NCBI RefSeq assembly: GCF_013373795.3
Contig: NZ_CP088022.1
Coordinates: forward strand, 3,968,001-4,032,000
Length of the DNA stretch: 64,000 bases
Direction of reading: 5' to 3'
DNA from: Bradyrhizobium quebecense
Lineage (GTDB): Bacteria > Pseudomonadota > Alphaproteobacteria > Rhizobiales > Xanthobacteraceae
Shown: positions 32,951 to 40,823 of the stretch, one piece after another
Layout of the letters: every line of letters begins with the position of its first letter
How positions within the stretch are numbered: position 1 is the stretch's first letter
The notes under the pieces: model-generated
The model's input: only the letters and a program-made list of their open reading frames with translations
Databases searched by the model: none
Told to the model about the DNA's origin: nothing
Translations under genes and position numbers: made by a program

Positions 32951-33199
32951 ATGGTCATAAAGCGATCGCGTCTCATGCACACAGAATCACTTGAAGAGCG
33001 TCTCAACATCAAGGCACAGCGGCTCCTGAAGGAGGCTTGGGGGCACTCCACCGGCGTCGAGCGCTCCCGCCTTATCCGCAAGGCGCGCCTTGCCGAAACC
33101 GCCTCACAGTTGAGCGACTGGCTGCGGTCGCCGGGTTTACGAGCGCTGACGTTAGGGGTCGATACCATTTCCATGCGCAAAGCGGCGCAAGCAGGATAG
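32951..33199 (+). CDS. Small conserved protein of the LEERL/SPGL family, copy 1
   Basis: 82 residues, basic at the start, with a predicted amphipathic helix (SLEERLNIKAQRLLKEA) and a second helix ending in ETASQLSDWLRSPGL. GGAG lies seven bases before the ATG. It is clearly related to the interrupted gene at 36988/40708: LEERL, LIRKAR/LLRKAR, ET and SPG all align. I recall many short Bradyrhizobium proteins with this pattern but cannot check. It has about 15 extra C-terminal residues compared with the paralogue. Function unknown. Confidence 0.6.
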   Translation: MVIKRSRLMHTESLEERLNIKAQRLLKEAWGHSTGVERSRLIRKARLAETASQLSDWLRSPGLRALTLGVDTISMRKAAQAG

Positions 33200-34396: not shown

Positions 34397-34404
34397 TCAT
34401 GAAG
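34397..34404. repeat. IS66 target site duplication, left copy
   Basis: TCATGAAG directly precedes the IS66 left end; the identical octamer follows the right end at 36986-36993. Eight base pairs is the standard duplication for IS66. The octamer contains the start codon of the interrupted small gene. Confidence 0.92.
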
Positions 34405-34474
34405 GTAAGCGCGATTTTCTTCGCACGCCGGCGGTTTTGATGGATTGCCCTGGTATCGGGCGATACCGAGCCGT

Positions 34475-36046
34475 TCAGGCAGTGGCGGCTTTGTGGAAGT
34501 TGAAGGGCAGCAGGTCTGTAATATCGGCGTCGCCGGCGCGCTGAGGCAATTCGGTGAGGACGTGGCGCAACCACGCTAACGGCTCGACACGTGAGGCGCG
34601 GCAGGTCAGCATCAGGCTATAGACGACGGCACTGGCCTTGGCTCCGTCCACGGTATCGCTGAACAACCAACTCTTCCTGCCAGTTGCAAAAACCCTGATG
34701 TCGCGCTCCAGAAGATTGTTGTCAATCGGCATGCTGCCGTCCCCGGTGTAGCGCGTCAGATATTCCCATTGGTTTCGGGTGTAGGATACGGCGTCGCCGA
34801 GCTTGCTGTCAGGCAAGACCTTCGGGGCCATGTCATCGAGCCATACTTTGAGAGCATTGAGGATGGGGACACTATGTTGCTGGCGGAAGCGGCGAATGCA
34901 GTAGGCCTGTGTTTCACCCTTCTCCGGTATTCCGTCCCACGCCCGCCTTTCAACCCGGTAGAGCTGTTCAAAGAACCGCAGCGCTTGCTCGGGCGGACCG
35001 CCGCCCTTCTTCCTGGCTTTGAGGGCATCGACAAAGCGCCGCCGGGAGTGGGCCATGCATCCAATGTGGGTGGCCCCTTCCAGCGTGCGCCATGCGGTAT
35101 AGCCGTCACTCATTACAATGCCACGGTAATCGCCGAGGAAGGCTTGCGGGTGGATTTGGCCGCGGCCCGGCTGATAATCCAGAAGAACGATCGGCTCGTG
35201 GCTGCCCTTGCCGCTGCGATAAGCCCACATGTACGATGTGCTGGTGGCCCGTTTGTCCTTCTCCTTGAGGACCTGAACCGTTGTCTCGTCGCCATGGATG
35301 AGAGGTTGTGATCTGAGCCGCAGCTTCAGGGCGTCGTAGATGCGATGCAGATGCTTCTCGCTCGAGCCAATCACCCAGTGGCCCAAAGCGCCGCGGCTGA
35401 CAGGAACACCTGCACGTTCGAAGGCCTGCGCCAGGCGGTAGAGCGGCGTGCCATCGACATATTTGTGAACCAGCGCGAACGCCAGCGTCGAGGGCGTGGC
35501 AACGCTGCCCGGCAATGGTTGCGGCGGCATCGGCGCGGTCACGACAGGGGCGTGGATCCCGGTGCGATCGCAATGGCGGCACGCATATTTGAAGCGCACA
35601 TTCTGTAAAACCTTCGCCTTCACCTCGATATGAAGTTGCTCGGTGACAGCCTCGCCCATGCGATGCATCTGGCCACGGCAGCAAGGACACGCCTTCTGAT
35701 CGTCGGACAGGTCATACTCGACGCGCTCACGAGGTAGGTTCCCCGGCAGCGGCTTGCGGCCGCGCTTCTTTCCCATTGTGTTTTCGACGGGTGGCAAGCC
35801 CGTGTCCGGAAGTTCGGCGATATTGTTCGTTTCACTGCCGGCGTCCTCCTCATCGGAGGCCTGCTCGGCTTCATTGAAGAGACGATCAACATGCTTTTCG
35901 CTGCGCGGCGCAAAACGATGCAGGCGTGCCAGCGCCAGTTCTTCCTCGAGCTTGGCGACGCGGTCGGCGAGTTGATGGTTCTCCGCCTGCAGCGCAGCAA
36001 TGCGTGCCAACAGCACTTCAACACTCGGATCGCCGGTTCGATTCAT
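34475..36046 (-). CDS. tnpC: IS66 transposase TnpC (DDE)
   Basis: 523 residues, full length. N-terminal leucine-zipper-like coiled coil (RIAALQAENHQLADRVAKLE), a zinc-binding region (CPCCRGQMHRMGE), then the DDE transposase domain with HGDETTVQVL and GCMAHSRRRFVDA, and an IS66 C-terminal domain with WLFSDTVDGAKASAVVYSLM. It catalyses transposition together with TnpA and TnpB. Confidence 0.95.
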   Translation of the reverse strand: MNRTGDPSVEVLLARIAALQAENHQLADRVAKLEEELALARLHRFAPRSEKHVDRLFNEAEQASDEEDAGSETNNIAELPDTGLPPVENTMGKKRGRKPLPGNLPRERVEYDLSDDQKACPCCRGQMHRMGEAVTEQLHIEVKAKVLQNVRFKYACRHCDRTGIHAPVVTAPMPPQPLPGSVATPSTLAFALVHKYVDGTPLYRLAQAFERAGVPVSRGALGHWVIGSSEKHLHRIYDALKLRLRSQPLIHGDETTVQVLKEKDKRATSTSYMWAYRSGKGSHEPIVLLDYQPGRGQIHPQAFLGDYRGIVMSDGYTAWRTLEGATHIGCMAHSRRRFVDALKARKKGGGPPEQALRFFEQLYRVERRAWDGIPEKGETQAYCIRRFRQQHSVPILNALKVWLDDMAPKVLPDSKLGDAVSYTRNQWEYLTRYTGDGSMPIDNNLLERDIRVFATGRKSWLFSDTVDGAKASAVVYSLMLTCRASRVEPLAWLRHVLTELPQRAGDADITDLLPFNFHKAATA

Positions 36047-36098
36047 CGAATTCTTGAATCTGAACCGTACCGACGCGTCAACCGCTCAACTCGAGAGC

Positions 36099-36452
36099 TC
36101 AGCCGGCAACCTGATATTGCCGCACCGGATGGCGGACCATCGCATCGATATCGATGCCGTCAAGGATCCAGTGCAATTGCTCCGTCGTCAGCGTGACGAT
36201 CGCCTCCTGGCGGCGCGGCCATCGGAACCTGTCTTCGGTCAGCCGCTTCAGGACCAGTACAAAGCCGGACCGATCGAAGAACAGAAGCTTCATCCGGTCG
36301 CAACGGCGATTGCAGAACGCAAAAACCGCCGGAGTGAATGGATCGAGCGCCATCGTCTCCTGGACCAGGACCGCAAGGCTGTTGATGCCAGCCCGGAAGT
36401 CGATCGGCTCACGGTGCAGATAGACCTGCAGGTCATCGCCCAGTCTAAACAT
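36099..36452 (-). CDS. tnpB: IS66 accessory protein TnpB
   Basis: 117 residues, the normal length. Contains VYLHREPIDFRAGINSLAVL and FAFCNRRCDRMKLLFFDRSG, the hallmark of IS66 Orf2 family proteins. It overlaps the end of tnpA by eight bases, so translation is coupled. Confidence 0.94.
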   Translation of the reverse strand: MFRLGDDLQVYLHREPIDFRAGINSLAVLVQETMALDPFTPAVFAFCNRRCDRMKLLFFDRSGFVLVLKRLTEDRFRWPRRQEAIVTLTTEQLHWILDGIDIDAMVRHPVRQYQVAG

Positions 36453-36903
36453 CGCCCAGCGCTCCGATGATCGCCGTCAATGCATCCACATCGCCGCATT
36501 CCAGCGCGAGCTTCACGCCATTCGGCAGCGACACGCTCACTTTGGCCGGAGAACAAAAAGCTGGAGTCCCTTTGGGTTCCGAACCACGCACTTCATCGTA
36601 AGCCGGCAAATCAACCGTCGCCACGCTGTCTTTTCGCGACAGGTCCCGCTCGGACTTCCCCTCAAGCTGAACCGGGATGAACGCCGGGCGTGAGGACGGC
36701 GGCAGCGACCTGGTCGCGCTGTGCTTCTTGATCCACTTCCGAAGGAGGTTCGCGTTGACCCCATGTTCGAGTGCAAGCCTCGATACCGAAACCCCAGGCT
36801 CAAGGCAGGCCGCGACAAGACGCTCTTTCGATGCCGCCTCGTAGCGCCGGCGACCGTTCCGGCCGACAAGCCTGACCCGCAGTTTCTGATCATCGTCGCT
36901 CAT
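36445..36903 (-). CDS. tnpA: IS66 accessory protein TnpA
   Basis: 152 residues from the ATG at 36903; the frame is open upstream into the terminal repeat. Helix-turn-helix of the IS3/IS66 type near the N-terminus (LVAACLEPGVSVSRLALEHG, then VNANLLRKWIKKH). The C-terminus VSLPNGVKLALECGDVDALT is typical of IS66 TnpA. Confidence 0.92.
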   Translation of the reverse strand: MSDDDQKLRVRLVGRNGRRRYEAASKERLVAACLEPGVSVSRLALEHGVNANLLRKWIKKHSATRSLPPSSRPAFIPVQLEGKSERDLSRKDSVATVDLPAYDEVRGSEPKGTPAFCSPAKVSVSLPNGVKLALECGDVDALTAIIGALGDV

Positions 36904-36985
36904 CACAAGGTGTCCACCTATTTTGGTGGACACCTCATGCATCAGGACTCTCAAAAGCAAAAGGTGCGGAGAAATTCGCGCTTAC

Positions 36986-36993
36986 TCATGAAG
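36986..36993. repeat. IS66 target site duplication, right copy
   Basis: TCATGAAG, identical to 34397-34404. Removing one copy plus the element rejoins a ribosome binding site (GAGGTAGAGG) to the ATG of the small gene. Confidence 0.92.
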
Positions 36994-37075
36994 CGACGAC
37001 GACGCCGGGTTGTTCAGATTATCCCCCTTGAAGAACGTCTCACCCAGCAAGCCAGAGAGCTGCGCCAACGAGCTA
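36988..37075 (+). pseudogene. Small LEERL/SPGL family gene copy 2, 5' part (split by transposons)
   Basis: From the ATG regenerated by the IS66 duplication to the TA where IS630 inserted: codes for MKRRRRRVVQIIPLEERL followed by TQQARELRQRAR. The frame then runs into the IS630 end and stops. The missing 3' part is at 40708-40823. Without the insertions the gene reads through in frame as a 67-residue protein related to the one at 32951. Confidence 0.85.
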
Positions 37076-37088
37076 GAGCAGATTCTGA

Positions 37089-37655
37089 TCAGACACGGTC
37101 ATAACCGGCTGCGGCGAAGAAGTTCAGGCACTCTTGGGCGGTGAAGGCGGTCAGGGCGGTGGCAATAGCGTTGTCCAAAGCCTCGATTGATCTGGCGGCG
37201 GCCTTTCGAAGTGCGGCTTTGAGCTTGGCGAAGGCCATTTCGATCGGATTGAGGTCGGGCGAATAAGGCGGCAAATAGAGGAGCTGGGCGCCCACGGCAT
37301 CGATTGCGATGCCGACCTCGGCGCGCTTGTGTGCTGCGAGATTGTCCATCACCACGATGTCGCCGGGCCTGAGTGTCGGCACGAGGACTTGCGTCACGTA
37401 AGCCTCGAACGCCAGACCATCCATGGGACCGTCAAGGACCATCGGCGCAGTCATGCCGGTCGCTCTGAGCGCGCCGACGAAGGTCGTCGTCTTCCAATGA
37501 CCATGCGGGAGCGCTGCGACACAGCGCTGGCCGTACGGCGAGCGGCCATAGCGCCGCGCCATCTTGGTCGAGGCTCCCGTCTCGTCGATAAACACCAACC
37601 GATGGATGCCGATCTCAGGCTGAGATGCCTTCCACGCCGCGCGTTCAGCGGCCAC
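37089..37655 (-). CDS. IS630 transposase, second frame (DDE catalytic part)
   Basis: 188 residues counted from an internal ATG; carries the DDE_3 catalytic region: [20 protein letters not shown] with the first Asp, [14 protein letters not shown] with the second, and [20 protein letters not shown] with the final Glu. The open frame continues upstream to the A8 tract, where it joins the first frame. It is normally made as a frameshift fusion. Confidence 0.9.
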
Positions 37656-38040
37656 GTCCGGCCGATCCTGCTCGCTGGCGTGCGATGTTTTTTTTGAACG
37701 TGATGTTGCGGCGATCGAAGAATCGCCAGACCACGCTCGGCACGAAACGCTCGCCGTGGACTTTGAGGAGATGGTCAGCGATCTCGGCCAGCGTCATGTC
37801 AGGCGTAGCCTTGACCAGGGAGAGGATCTCCGCAGCATGACCCTCGATCCGAGCTGAACGTCTGTCTCCGCCCTGCGCTCCCGCCTCACAAGCGCCGGTG
37901 CTGCGCCATTCGTTGACCAGTTCGATCGCTGTCGATGGCGCTACGCCGAACCGGCCGGCGGCGCCCCGACAGCTCATGCCTTCCTCTTCCACAGCCCGAA
38001 TAATGCGAAGGCGAAGGTCCGGCGAGAGCGGCTTAGCCAT
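37645..38040 (-). CDS. IS630 transposase, first frame (helix-turn-helix part)
   Basis: 131 residues with the winged helix-turn-helix DNA-binding region ([36 protein letters not shown]). Near its end is a run of eight A on the coding strand (TTCAAAAAAAACATC). Skipping one A moves into the frame of the catalytic half and gives [14 protein letters not shown], which reads as normal IS630 sequence. Programmed slippage or frameshifting is likely; a disabling mutation is the alternative. Confidence 0.88.
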
Positions 38041-38458
38041 GGGGGCTGGCCTCCATCACCAGCCCTCAGGGTGAATCACGATTTGCCTCACAAGGGAATC
38101 TGGAGGGTTCTGTGAGGTCGCGCTCACGCGAGGGCGCGGCAGGCGCTTATGACGCGACCTCATTGAAGCCGGATTGAACGAAGGCGCGGGAGGCTATTCG
38201 CGGTTTTGCAGCTATGGGGATTGTTCGAGATCGCCATGCCCGATCTGCTGGCTCGGCGCGTGAGGCAGAGACACAGGAGTGCGCATCCTGGAAGAGTTGA
38301 GATCAGACGCGCTTCGCCTGAGATCGCGATAGGCCTTTTGCTGCATCGGACGGTTGTTGTCGCGCAGTGTGACAGCACGGATTCGACATCGTCCGCGATG
38401 ATCGAGACGCTGGGAGCGAAATGACGAATGATGATCGTCGTGCACGACATGACTTGGC

Positions 38459-39709
38459 TCACGATGTGTCGCATCGGAACGGTGATGTTCGAGGGCTGGG
38501 GCGTCTGAAGCTATGTCGAAAGCGCTCAATGATGCGCATGACGCCACCACAATCGGGACAGGCAGGAACCTCGGCCCGGGTTTGAGCCTCCGAATCCACA
38601 GGCGACGGCTGGCCATCGTTTGGGGCTGTTCGCTCATGATCGAGAAGTTCGCGGCAAAGGGCGAGCTTGGCAGCGCGATGGCGGTTGGCCATGAAGCCGA
38701 AGTGGCGGATGCGGTGGAAGCCGTCAGGCAGCGTATGAAGCAGGAAACGGCGAATGAACTCATCGGGCTTGAGATTCATGATCTTTGTCGCGCTGTTTTG
38801 GCGATAGTCCTTCCATGAGAAGGCGACATGATCGTCGTCGAGTGCGACGAGCCGGCTGTTGGCGATCGCGACGCGATGGGTGTAGCGGCCGAGATAGGCC
38901 AGGACCTGTGCGGGTCCGCCGAAGGGCCGCTTGGCGTAAACAACCCAGTTGATGCGTCGCATGGCGTCGAGGTGGGCCGCAAAGGCAGCCGGCTCGGCCA
39001 GAGCTCCGAGATCGCCGAAGAAACGCAAGGCACCGGAGTTGAAGGCTGCCGACAGACGTTTGAGAAAAAGTGTGCGAAATAGTCTGGACAACGGTTTGAC
39101 GGCCAGGAAGAAGTTCGGTCGGCAAGCGGTCCAGCGCGCGCCATCGGGCGAGAGGCCGCCACCCGGAACGACGCAATGGACGTGGGGATGATGCATCAGC
39201 GTCTGTCCCCAGGTGTGGAGGACGGCGACGCCGCCGATCGCACCGCCGAGCCGGCGTGGATTGGCGGCGAGCGTCGTCATCGCCTCGGCGGCAGCCTTGA
39301 ACAGGATGGCATAGACGACGGCCTTGTTCTGGAAAGCGATCGCGGCGATCGGTGCGGGAAGTGTAAAGACGACGTGGAAATAGGGAACCGGAAGCAGGTC
39401 GGCTTGACGCGCGGCGAGCCACGCGGCTCGGGCTCTCCCCTGACACTTCGGACAGTGCCGATTGCGGCAGGAATTATAGGCAACGCGTGTCGTGCCGCAG
39501 TCGTCGCAAGCCTGCATGTGGCCGCCGAGCGCCTCGGTCCGGCACGCAACGATCGCGCTCATCACGCGCCGCTCGACCCGCCCCAGATGACCGGCATGTA
39601 CACGGCGATAGGCGTCGCCATGCCGGCACAGAATATCGGCAATCTCGATGGCGGGCCTGTTGGAGCGGATGTCGGAGCGGGTCATGACCCGCATCCCGCT
39701 GCGGGTCAT
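38459..39709 (-). CDS. IS91 family transposase (Y2/HUH type)
   Basis: Rolling-circle transposase, 416 residues. N-terminal zinc-binding region with CDDCGTTRVAYNSCRNRHCP and CQGRAR; HUH metal motif in HHPHVHCVVPGG; catalytic tyrosine region YLGRYTHRVAIANSR; C-terminal CPDCGGVMR zinc knuckle. It starts with ATGA overlapping the recombinase stop codon. It appears complete. Confidence 0.93.
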   Translation of the reverse strand: MTRSGMRVMTRSDIRSNRPAIEIADILCRHGDAYRRVHAGHLGRVERRVMSAIVACRTEALGGHMQACDDCGTTRVAYNSCRNRHCPKCQGRARAAWLAARQADLLPVPYFHVVFTLPAPIAAIAFQNKAVVYAILFKAAAEAMTTLAANPRRLGGAIGGVAVLHTWGQTLMHHPHVHCVVPGGGLSPDGARWTACRPNFFLAVKPLSRLFRTLFLKRLSAAFNSGALRFFGDLGALAEPAAFAAHLDAMRRINWVVYAKRPFGGPAQVLAYLGRYTHRVAIANSRLVALDDDHVAFSWKDYRQNSATKIMNLKPDEFIRRFLLHTLPDGFHRIRHFGFMANRHRAAKLALCRELLDHERTAPNDGQPSPVDSEAQTRAEVPACPDCGGVMRIIERFRHSFRRPSPRTSPFRCDTS

Positions 39710-40566
39710 CCAGGTGGCGTCACCTCCAGCGACAGGCGATCGAGCGGGCTCTGCGTCGCTCGGATCGTATCGGTGGCGACCTGCGTGTAGCGCGCTGTCG
39801 ACGACAAATTATTGTGCCCGAGCAAGACCTGGATGATCCGGATATCGGTTCCGTTCTCGAGAAGATGTGTCGCGAAGCTGTGGCGCAGCGTGTGCAGCGT
39901 GACGCGCTTGGTCAGGCCCGCAGCCTTCACCGCCGACCGGCAGGCGGCATGCAGCACGGTCTGATCGATCGGATGATCTTCGTCACGACCAGGGAACAGA
40001 TAAAGCCGCGGCCGGGCGAGCCGCCAGTAGGTGCGCAGGATGCCCAGCAGCTGGGGCGACAGCATCACGTTGCGATCCTTCGCGCCCTTGCCGTGGCGCA
40101 CCTGGATGACGCCGCGGGCGCTGTCGATGTCTTCGATCCGCAGTCCCGCAACCTCCGAGGCCCTGAGCCCGGCCGCATAGGCGGTGGTGAGCGCGGCGCG
40201 GCTCTTCAGGCTCGATACCGCTTCAAGAAACTGAACCACTTCGTCGGCGCTGAGAACGACCGGCAGCTTGCGCGGTTCTCGCGCATAGGGAATGCGCTCT
40301 GGGATGAGCGCCTCGCCGAGCGTGACGCCGTAGAAAAACCGTAGCGCACAGACGATCTGGTTCAGCGCCGGCCATGAGATGCCGGTCGAGACCAAATGCA
40401 CCTGGAAGGCGCGGACGTCTTCCAGCTCTAACCGGTCAGGCGATCGGCCAAAATAGCGGCTGAACTTCGAAACCGCGCTGATGTAGGATCTTTGCGTCGC
40501 CGGCGACAGATTGCGGACGGTCATGTCTTCGATCATGCGGCGGCGAAGAGGGCTCAAATCGGCCAT
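39706..40566 (-). CDS. Tyrosine-type site-specific recombinase carried by the IS91-like element
   Basis: 286 residues from the ATG at 40566 (AGGAG upstream). N-terminal SAM-like core-binding domain (LSPATQRSYISAVSKFSRYF), then the catalytic domain with Arg in YAAGLRASEVAGLR, HTLRHSFATHLL (His-x-x-Arg), GHNNLSSTARYTQV with the nucleophile Tyr. IS91 relatives with an upstream integrase-like gene are known; its exact role in transposition is unclear. Confidence 0.9.
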   Translation of the reverse strand: MADLSPLRRRMIEDMTVRNLSPATQRSYISAVSKFSRYFGRSPDRLELEDVRAFQVHLVSTGISWPALNQIVCALRFFYGVTLGEALIPERIPYAREPRKLPVVLSADEVVQFLEAVSSLKSRAALTTAYAAGLRASEVAGLRIEDIDSARGVIQVRHGKGAKDRNVMLSPQLLGILRTYWRLARPRLYLFPGRDEDHPIDQTVLHAACRSAVKAAGLTKRVTLHTLRHSFATHLLENGTDIRIIQVLLGHNNLSSTARYTQVATDTIRATQSPLDRLSLEVTPPG

Positions 40567-40707
40567 CTCGATACTCCTGTCTGAGGGGGTGGGCTCCAAC
40601 ACCCACATCCTCTCAGCCAGGAGGCGATCTATGCCACCTTGCCCCCTACGCCGCGGCAGCGGCTTAGTTCAATCCCTTCCGATTCCGCCAGGTCAGAAAA
40701 TGCTCTA

Positions 40708-40823
40708 GAAGACTTGCCCCGTGTCGAGAGCGGGAAGCATTGCTGAGAAAGGCGCGTCACAATGAGACCACCGCTCATTTGACCGAGTGGCTGATGTCTC
40801 CCGGGCCACGCGCTCCAATTTAG
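40708..40823 (+). pseudogene. Small LEERL/SPGL family gene copy 2, 3' part
   Basis: Continues in frame from the 5' part once the IS630 and one TA are removed: RLAPCREREALLRKARHNE, then TTAHLTEWLMSPGPRAPI and a TAG stop. The motif order (LLRKAR, ET, WL, SPG) matches the intact paralogue at 32951. GGAG overlaps its stop and serves the next micro-gene. Confidence 0.85.

What the first reader, a model, noticed from the sequence alone, without database searches (positions are those of the whole stretch)
34397..40823. Three nested transposons split one 67-codon gene, and the ancestral gene can be rebuilt exactly
An IS66 (34405-36985) has an exact 8-bp duplication TCATGAAG covering the start codon of a small gene. 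An IS630 (37076-40705) is inserted at a TA inside the same gene, and an IS91-like element (about 38095-40670) is inserted inside the IS630. Removing the elements and one copy of each duplication rejoins a ribosome binding site, the ATG, MKRRRRRVVQIIPLEERL... and ...LLRKARHNETTAHLTEWL... in one frame with a stop at 40823. This is seen directly. It shows serial insertion at a short non-essential target within about 100 bp.
Basis: seen in the sequence. Interest (0 to 1): 0.7.

Follow-up and report, generated by a model that had tools for sequence, protein, structure and literature searches.

The report
Transposon that hunts other transposons' promoters
In a Bradyrhizobium chromosome a small gene was broken by two jumping genes, one of which carries a third that inserts mostly in front of the transposase genes of other jumping genes, at a shared two-box motif that may be their switch.

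Summary
An IS66 with an exact 8-bp duplication and an IS630 at a TA split one 67-codon gene; an IS91-like element with a tyrosine recombinase sits inside the IS630. The rebuilt protein exists letter for letter in a database (P0002), and other Bradyrhizobium carry the uninterrupted gene. Corrections: IS66 lies beside the IS630, not nested; and the IS630::IS91-like composite occurs in 14 full copies with one identical junction, so the nesting need not have happened here. The unexpected part: all 30 (near-)full IS91-like copies in this genome (12 distinct targets) abut GATTC[C/T]-N17-GATTCA, usually 26-32 bases before a transposase start, in IS630, IS5 and a DDE_5 element. Outside this genome 16 of 22 distinct targets have both boxes. 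The motif has 60 sites in 34 genomes of the order, about 0.4 per genome in other classes. In IS5 elements chosen without the motif, GANTC (the CcrM site) is about fivefold enriched before the transposase in alphaproteobacteria, not in gammaproteobacteria. I read the motif as a promoter with a leader hairpin, a safe harbour for a transposon-hunting transposon. Targeting is well supported; promoter function, methylation control and movement of the composite are inference.

The parts
34397..34404 (.). left copy of the 8-bp IS66 target duplication TCATGAAG (contains the ATG at 34399-34401)
34405..36985 (-). IS66-family element (three genes: 36445-36960 HTH_Tnp_1, 36099-36452 TnpB, 34475-36046 DDE transposase)
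36986..36993 (.). right copy of the IS66 target duplication
36988..37075 (+). 5' part of the broken 67-codon gene (start codon in the right-hand duplication copy; ends with the TA target of IS630)
37076..38100 (-). left part of the IS630-family element: end, transposase in two overlapping frames (37089-37655, 37645-38040), leader
38041..38071 (-). leader of the IS630 transposase: predicted hairpin with GGAGG, between the GATTCA box and the ATG at 38038-38040
   Evidence: -17.2 kcal/mol, z -2.4 against mononucleotide shuffles
38072..38100 (-). target motif TGAATC-N17-GGAATC (read towards the transposase: GATTCC-N17-GATTCA)
38101..40674 (-). IS91-like element inserted in IS630: Y2 (HUH) transposase 38459-39709 and tyrosine recombinase 39706-40608; the end downstream of the transposase abuts the motif
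40675..40705 (-). right end of IS630 (31 bp, ending TCAGAAAATGCTC)
40706..40823 (+). 3' part of the broken gene (begins with the second TA) with stop TAG at 40821-40823
32951..33199 (+). 82-codon paralogue of the broken gene (44% identity over 62 residues)

Best explanation
Two independent insertions destroyed a small Bradyrhizobium gene: IS66 across its start codon and an IS630 at a TA in its middle (shown). The IS630 carries an IS91-like element with its own tyrosine recombinase. That element does not insert at random: the end downstream of its transposase lies against GATTC[C/T]-N17-GATTCA, a motif placed just upstream of the transposase start in several unrelated IS families (shown). I infer that the two boxes, 17 bp apart and followed by a hairpin holding the ribosome-binding site, are the transposase promoter and leader, that each box contains a GANTC site which CcrM could methylate, and that insertion at the outer edge of the first box leaves the promoter, and in clean insertions the IS ends, in place. 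The IS91-like element thus lives in a safe harbour, and its host IS may still move and carry it (inferred).
For: Target: 30 of 30 full or near-full copies in this genome abut GATTC(C or T)-N17-GATTCA, in 12 distinct 29-mers (19 of the 49-row places are one IS630 type, so copies are not independent). Outside this genome 16 of 22 distinct targets have GATTC-N18-GATTC (8 of 12 from Bradyrhizobium genomes, 8 of 10 plasmid records; L153 also has both but was left out for short flank). The motif occurs 48 times at spacing 17 and 5 times at the other 22 spacings from 8 to 30 together. Neighbours: of the 30 copies, 28 are followed within 55-82 nt of the motif's first base by an ORF of 60 or more codons starting like the IS transposases identified by Pfam; at 29 of the 30 motif sites fetched (of 48) the same holds. 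Other genomes: 60 sites in the 34 same-order genomes outside the family (1.8 per genome) against about 104 in 263 genomes of other classes (0.4 per genome), counted by eye; of 29 alphaproteobacterial loci fetched, 18 had a testable ORF and 14 of these had transposase-type domains (L204 only a helix-turn-helix match), families IS630, IS5 (DUF4096), DDE_5 and DUF772; 0 of 20 fetched sites from other classes. Sample not chosen by the motif: IS5 (PF13340) loci of the order, 26 of 30 usable, 39 GANTC in the 140 nt before the match (10.9 per kb, 33 of them GATTC) against 1.7-2.3 per kb around; gammaproteobacteria, 21 of 30 usable, 3 (1.0 per kb). Hairpin: 40 distinct leaders mean z -2.5, gamma IS5 leaders -0.2 (n 12), p 6e-5. 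14 full composites with TA on both sides.
Against: 6 of 34 distinct targets do not show both boxes: L150 sits at a single GATTCA box before an IS630-like start, L151, L171/L172 and L175 lack the second box, L170 and L181 have an altered first box. The reversed-pattern control (1 in the order) is too lenient: it also runs low in other classes (15 against about 104), so the honest excess is about fourfold per genome. IS5 elements without the two-box pair also have leader hairpins (18 loci, mean z -1.7), so the hairpin is not tied to the pair; the pair itself was found in only 6 of 30 unselected alphaproteobacterial IS5 loci. Several IS91-like copies have left and right flanks from different IS types (for example L043, L045, L046, L050), so recombination between copies has happened and not every host IS is whole. 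L044 is followed only by a leader fragment and L045 by a 32-codon frame. If CcrM alone mattered any GANTC would serve, yet 33 of 39 are GATTC. No promoter activity, methylation or transposition was measured. The full composite was seen in no other genome (256 searched, own included; two candidates scored per genome, list cut) and in 0 of 80 matching plasmid records at 80% cover, so its movement as a unit is not shown.
Confidence: 0.75

Rival explanations
1. The IS91-like element entered this IS630 once and all composites are copies made by IS630 transposition of the whole 3.6-kb unit.
For: Identical internal junction in all 14 full composites; the window copy, L030 and L032 show no mismatch to each other's IS630 and IS91-like parts; motif sites of this IS630 are occupied more often (17 of 22) than the other motif sites (12 of 26), Fisher p 0.04 (occupancy; test).
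Against: The four composites with IS630 variant T58 carry four different IS91-like haplotypes, and three of the variants (830T, 926G, 1806 insertion) recur in C58 composites, which needs several entries or gene conversion; the same element sits at the same motif in IS5 and DDE_5 elements.
Confidence: 0.2
2. One reading: the IS91-like element jumped into the IS630 after it had landed in this gene.
For: Five IS630 copies in this genome are still empty, so later entry into a resident copy is possible.
Against: Composites exist at 13 other sites; nothing at this locus tells the order.
Confidence: 0.3
3. The IS91-like element only needs GATTC (a short IS91-type target); the second box is a by-product because what it prefers is IS leaders for another reason, such as the hairpin or methylated DNA.
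For: L150 lies at a single GATTCA box, L151, L171 and L175 lack the second box; IS91 relatives are recalled to use only a 4-bp target.
Against: 12 of 12 distinct targets in this genome have both boxes at exact spacing although the second lies 23 bp away, and 16 of 22 elsewhere.
Confidence: 0.2
4. The two boxes are transposase-binding subterminal repeats of the IS ends, not a promoter.
For: They lie about 17-31 bp inside the IS end, and IS630 ends contain further GAATC sites.
Against: Unrelated transposase families share them; the distance to the start codon is nearly fixed (26-32 nt in most) while the distance to the IS end varies; unselected IS5 show a single TGATTCAA-type box at this distance.
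Confidence: 0.25

Closest known systems
IS4321/IS5075 (IS110 family) and other transposon-targeting elements
   Same: An IS whose usual target is a conserved sequence of other transposons, described as a safe harbour (PMC8269217, passages read); the small repeat RUP is reported to sit in several IS families (PMC2229807, passages read).
   Different: [quoted passage not shown] here the target is a motif before the transposase start, found with four kinds of transposase domain, and the hunter is an IS91-type element with a tyrosine recombinase.
IS91 family (NCBIfam NF033538)
   Same: Y2_Tnp and zinc-binding domains; one end constant next to a defined target.
   Different: Target is a 29-bp two-box motif instead of the recalled 4-bp GAAC/CAAG; carries a tyrosine recombinase gene.
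Tn10/Tn5 control by Dam methylation and leader hairpins
   Same: A methylation site (GATC) overlaps the -10 element of the transposase promoter (PMC5390034, passages read); RBS-masking hairpins are recalled.
   Different: Here the site would be GANTC of alphaproteobacteria, in up to two boxes 17 bp apart, and its role is only inferred.
CIR intergenic repeats of Caulobacter and relatives
   Same: Repeats of alphaproteobacteria with conserved GANTC (PMC2229807, passages read).
   Different: CIR are small intergenic repeats; here GANTC lies before transposase genes of full IS.

Membership tests
IS66 | three genes (HTH_Tnp_1, TnpB_IS66, DDE_Tnp_IS66) | tested here: met
   (NF033517 423 bits, cut-off 180)
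IS66 | 8-bp target duplication and inverted ends | tested here: met
   exact duplication in 8 of 8 full copies fetched
IS630 | DDE_3 transposase of IS630 type | tested here: met
   (NF033545 138 bits, cut-off 100)
IS630 | insertion at TA, duplicated | tested here: met
   TA on both sides in 14 of 14 full composites
IS91 | Y2_Tnp transposase with zinc-binding domain | tested here: met
   (NF033538 435 bits, cut-off 125)
IS91 | 4-bp target GAAC/CAAG at the oriIS side (recalled) | tested here: not met
   GATTCC or GATTCT at 30 of 30 copies; filed by its protein as IS91-like, not as a typical IS91
IS91 | no target duplication | tested here: inconclusive
   GATT/AATC at both junctions, either a 4-bp duplication or an element end equal to the target
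Transposon-targeting IS (IS5075-like behaviour) | target is a conserved sequence of other mobile elements | tested here: met
Transposon-targeting IS (IS5075-like behaviour) | host element stays mobile after insertion | not testable with these tools
   ends and leader are in place in 14 composites, but movement as a unit is not shown

The most novel reading that the evidence does not exclude
Several unrelated IS families of alphaproteobacteria share one control module in front of the transposase: a promoter whose -10-like (TGATTCAA) and often -35-like (GATTCC) boxes are GANTC sites, plus an RBS-masking hairpin, so that transposition would be tied to CcrM methylation and replication; IS91-like elements with a tyrosine recombinase have become hunters of this module and ride on the IS that carry it.
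Probability: 0.45. Interest if true: 0.82.

Novelty: new variant of a known kind. Interest (0 to 1): 0.6.

Why it matters
The broken gene itself is ordinary. What it led to is a rule for where an abundant rhizobial mobile element inserts, with a motif that marks transposase leaders of several IS families. If the boxes are promoters read through GANTC methylation, it would extend to alphaproteobacteria the Dam control known for Tn10 and Tn5, and make it testable with existing methylome and start-site methods. It would also explain how IS91-like copies can pile up while mostly sparing host genes.

Tried and rejected
Composite on plasmids: none (0 of 80 matching records cover 80%; 25 listed). Composite in other Bradyrhizobium genomes: none seen at full length (256 genomes with own; only two candidate places per genome were scored and the match list was cut); relatives of this IS630 there are matched over 1-1025 only. 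A single-origin composite was rejected as the whole story because of mixed haplotypes, but gene conversion among copies is not excluded, and flanks of different IS types around some copies (L043, L045, L046, L050) show that recombination occurs. A CcrM-only reading (any GANTC) was weakened by the preference for GATTC. The reversed-pattern control was found too lenient (it is low in every class), so the comparison between classes is used instead. NCBIfam gives the 67-aa protein no name. Papers: ten searches were looked at by listing only, except PMC8269217, PMC2229807, PMC3925955 and PMC5390034, of which passages were read; none of these passages describes this target motif or GANTC boxes in transposase promoters. 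Subscription papers and preprints are not held. ISfinder was not available, so the elements have no ISfinder names.

Rows dropped before counts: 4 of 30 alphaproteobacterial IS5 loci (L236, L247, L259, L262; 0 GANTC) and 9 of 30 gammaproteobacterial ones (L270, L272, L277, L278, L285, L286, L289, L292, L293; 3 GANTC, in L286 and L293) were left out because the match was misplaced, partial or near a contig end; with them the gamma count would be 6. The 30 alpha loci come from 30 genomes, the 30 gamma loci from 15, several from one genome. In one search the hairpin controls used 18 and 12 loci with a usable ATG. In one search, 16 of 19 loci given were printed (the stretch examined was too short for three). 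In one search, 30 of 48 motif sites had been fetched; occupancy of the other 18 was read from the coordinates. Of 29 alphaproteobacterial loci had no testable ORF, several because the contig ends there; among the 18 with one, L185 (GMP synthase), L188, L195 and L209 gave no transposase domain. Among the 40 leaders, L185 is not an IS. An earlier count said 7 IS5 loci with the two-box pair; the recount gives 6.
Full report
WHAT IS THERE. The window lies at 3,968,001-4,032,000 of the largest of four contigs of a 9.17-Mb genome, by its relatives a Bradyrhizobium. IS66 (34405-36985) has an exact 8-bp duplication TCATGAAG; IS630 (37076-40705) has TA on both sides; an IS91-like element (38101-40674) lies in the IS630 between its right end and its transposase. 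Families were confirmed by Pfam and NCBIfam. Joining the flanks gives one 67-codon ORF with a stop at 40823.

THE GENE WAS REAL. A database protein, P0002 (6 member sequences, longest contig 8,549,412 bases), is identical to the rebuilt protein; the tool hides its source, and the contig length differs from this chromosome (8,740,742), so I infer a sister strain. Bradyrhizobium sp. C9 has the intact gene, 88% identical, in a 658-bp alignment at 84% identity without a gap at either insertion point. In 265 genomes (own included) four others match at least 359 of the 371 joined bases in one piece at 81-91% identity, and more over about 90% of it at lower identity. Against L084, L085, L086 and L088 dN/dS is 0.18-0.44, from 7-13 synonymous and 8-9 other changes (L084 and L086 gave the same numbers). 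In its own genome the gene has 15 further matches at E up to 0.01, among them the window ORF 32951-33199. NCBIfam has no name for it. The database search returned 24 proteins (P0001-P0024), P0002 included; those with a source name are called hypothetical or uncharacterized, and the organism names shown are Bradyrhizobium.

CORRECTIONS. IS66 is not nested; it lies 90 bp from the IS630. The IS630::IS91-like composite exists in 14 full copies of 3,630-3,631 bp, each between TA pairs at its own site, and five IS630 copies are empty. Two insertions suffice to explain the gene; whether the IS91-like element joined the IS630 here or before cannot be told. Mixed haplotypes (four T58 composites with four IS91-like haplotypes; variants shared with C58 composites and with copies outside this IS630) point to several entries or to gene conversion.

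THE TARGET RULE. Read towards the transposase, all 30 full or near-full IS91-like copies of this genome abut GATTC(C/T)-N17-GATTCA, in 12 distinct 29-mers; shorter fragments of the element were not counted. After 28 of the 30 an ORF of 60 or more codons starts 55-82 nt from the first base of the motif; L044 is followed only by a leader fragment and L045 by a 32-codon frame with an IS5-like start. The hosts outside this IS630 are other IS630, IS5 (DUF4096) and a DDE_5 element (IS701-like, name recalled). Some copies have flanks of two different IS types (L043, L045, L046, L050), a sign of recombination. Elsewhere, 16 of 22 distinct targets have both boxes: 8 of 12 from other Bradyrhizobium genomes and 8 of 10 plasmid records of Bradyrhizobium, Mesorhizobium, Microvirga, Rhizobium, Ensifer and Sinorhizobium. 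The six exceptions are named under evidence against. In one search, 459 of 72,556 plasmid records match the element and 54 cover 80% of it; I read 10 of them.

THE MOTIF MARKS TRANSPOSASE LEADERS. In this genome the motif occurs 48 times at spacing 17 and 5 times at the 22 other spacings between 8 and 30. Of the 30 sites fetched, 29 have a transposase-type ORF starting 55-82 nt after the motif's first base. In 398 genomes of the phylum 126 have it. Counted by eye from that answer: 60 sites in the 34 genomes of the same order outside the family (reversed pattern 1), about 104 in 263 genomes of other classes (reversed pattern 15), none of these with more than 4. The reversed pattern is thus too lenient a control, and the excess in the order is about fourfold per genome, concentrated in some genomes (G448 15, G314 11; 18 of the 34 have none). 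What separates the classes is the neighbour: of 29 alphaproteobacterial loci fetched, 18 had a testable ORF, 14 with transposase-type domains (one of them, L204, only a helix-turn-helix match); of 20 loci fetched from other classes, 6 had an ORF and none had a transposase domain.

A SAMPLE NOT CHOSEN BY THE MOTIF. IS5 transposases (PF13340) of the order, 26 usable of 30 loci: 39 GANTC in 3,592 bases upstream (10.9 per kb; seven other gapped palindromes 5-16 in number), against 1.7-2.3 per kb further out and in the genes; gammaproteobacteria, 21 usable of 30: 3 (1.0 per kb). In 18 of the 26 a GATTC lies 42-50 nt before the match (in L254 and L255 this one belongs to the hairpin), with the surrounding consensus T-N-T-GATTC-A-A in the 16 printed. 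The two-box pair was seen in 6 of the 30 alphaproteobacterial loci and in none of the 30 gammaproteobacterial ones. Leaders after the motif fold into a hairpin that usually holds the GGAGG: mean z -2.5 for 40 leaders (31 below -1), -1.7 for 18 alphaproteobacterial IS5 without the pair, -0.2 for 12 gammaproteobacterial IS5.

HOW IT PROBABLY WORKS. Shown: target choice and position before transposase starts; host IS ends in place in the 14 full composites. Inferred: the boxes are -35 and -10-like elements; transcripts begun inside the hairpin would free the ribosome-binding site while read-through transcripts would hide it, as recalled for IS10 and IS50; both boxes are GANTC sites open to CcrM (CcrM in alphaproteobacteria: PMC3925955 and PMC2229807, passages; not checked in this genome). 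A GATC over the -10 element of the Tn10/Tn5 transposase promoter is the known parallel (PMC5390034, passage). IS5075 in Tn21-type ends is the known parallel for a transposon hunter in a safe harbour (PMC8269217, passages). Which enzyme of the IS91-like element chooses the target, the Y2 transposase or the tyrosine recombinase, is open.

VERDICT. The finding as given is correct in its sequence facts and ordinary in kind; the two-box target of the IS91-like element and the shared leader module are the part worth following.

Noticed in passing
L005/L034 (C1:4695136-4697716 and from C1:4697750): A second IS66 copy lies 33 bp from another IS630::IS91-like composite; two of 8 full IS66 copies within 100 bp of one of about 22 copies of this IS630 looks like far more than random spacing would give (not tested against IS clustering).
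   Followed up: no
L047, L048 and L054: The same 29-bp target lies beside the IS91-like element in two IS630 and in one IS5 whose other copies have a different N17; the IS91-like element may have carried 29 bp of its old target along to a cut at the second box, or conversion occurred.
   Followed up: partly
32951-33199 and one search matches: The broken gene belongs to a small-protein family with 15 further matches in this genome, one of them in the window upstream; function unknown.
   Followed up: partly
37645-37697: The IS630 transposase is split in two overlapping frames at a run of eight T (37688-37695, plus strand), which looks like programmed frameshifting.
   Followed up: no
L061 (C1:5645889-5652166): Two full IS91-like copies face away from each other around one IS630 copy plus a 67-bp repeat of its leader; the second ends against a different IS end.
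   Followed up: no
L182 (Rhizobium ruizarguesonis NZLR24 plasmid p4): An IS630 with a related IS91-like element lies about 0.3 kb upstream of nifH; possible effect on nif expression not examined.
   Followed up: no
L234-L256 (IS5 loci): A single TGATTCAA-type box 42-50 nt before the DUF4096 match recurs in IS5 elements of many genomes of the order even without the upstream GATTCC box.
   Followed up: partly
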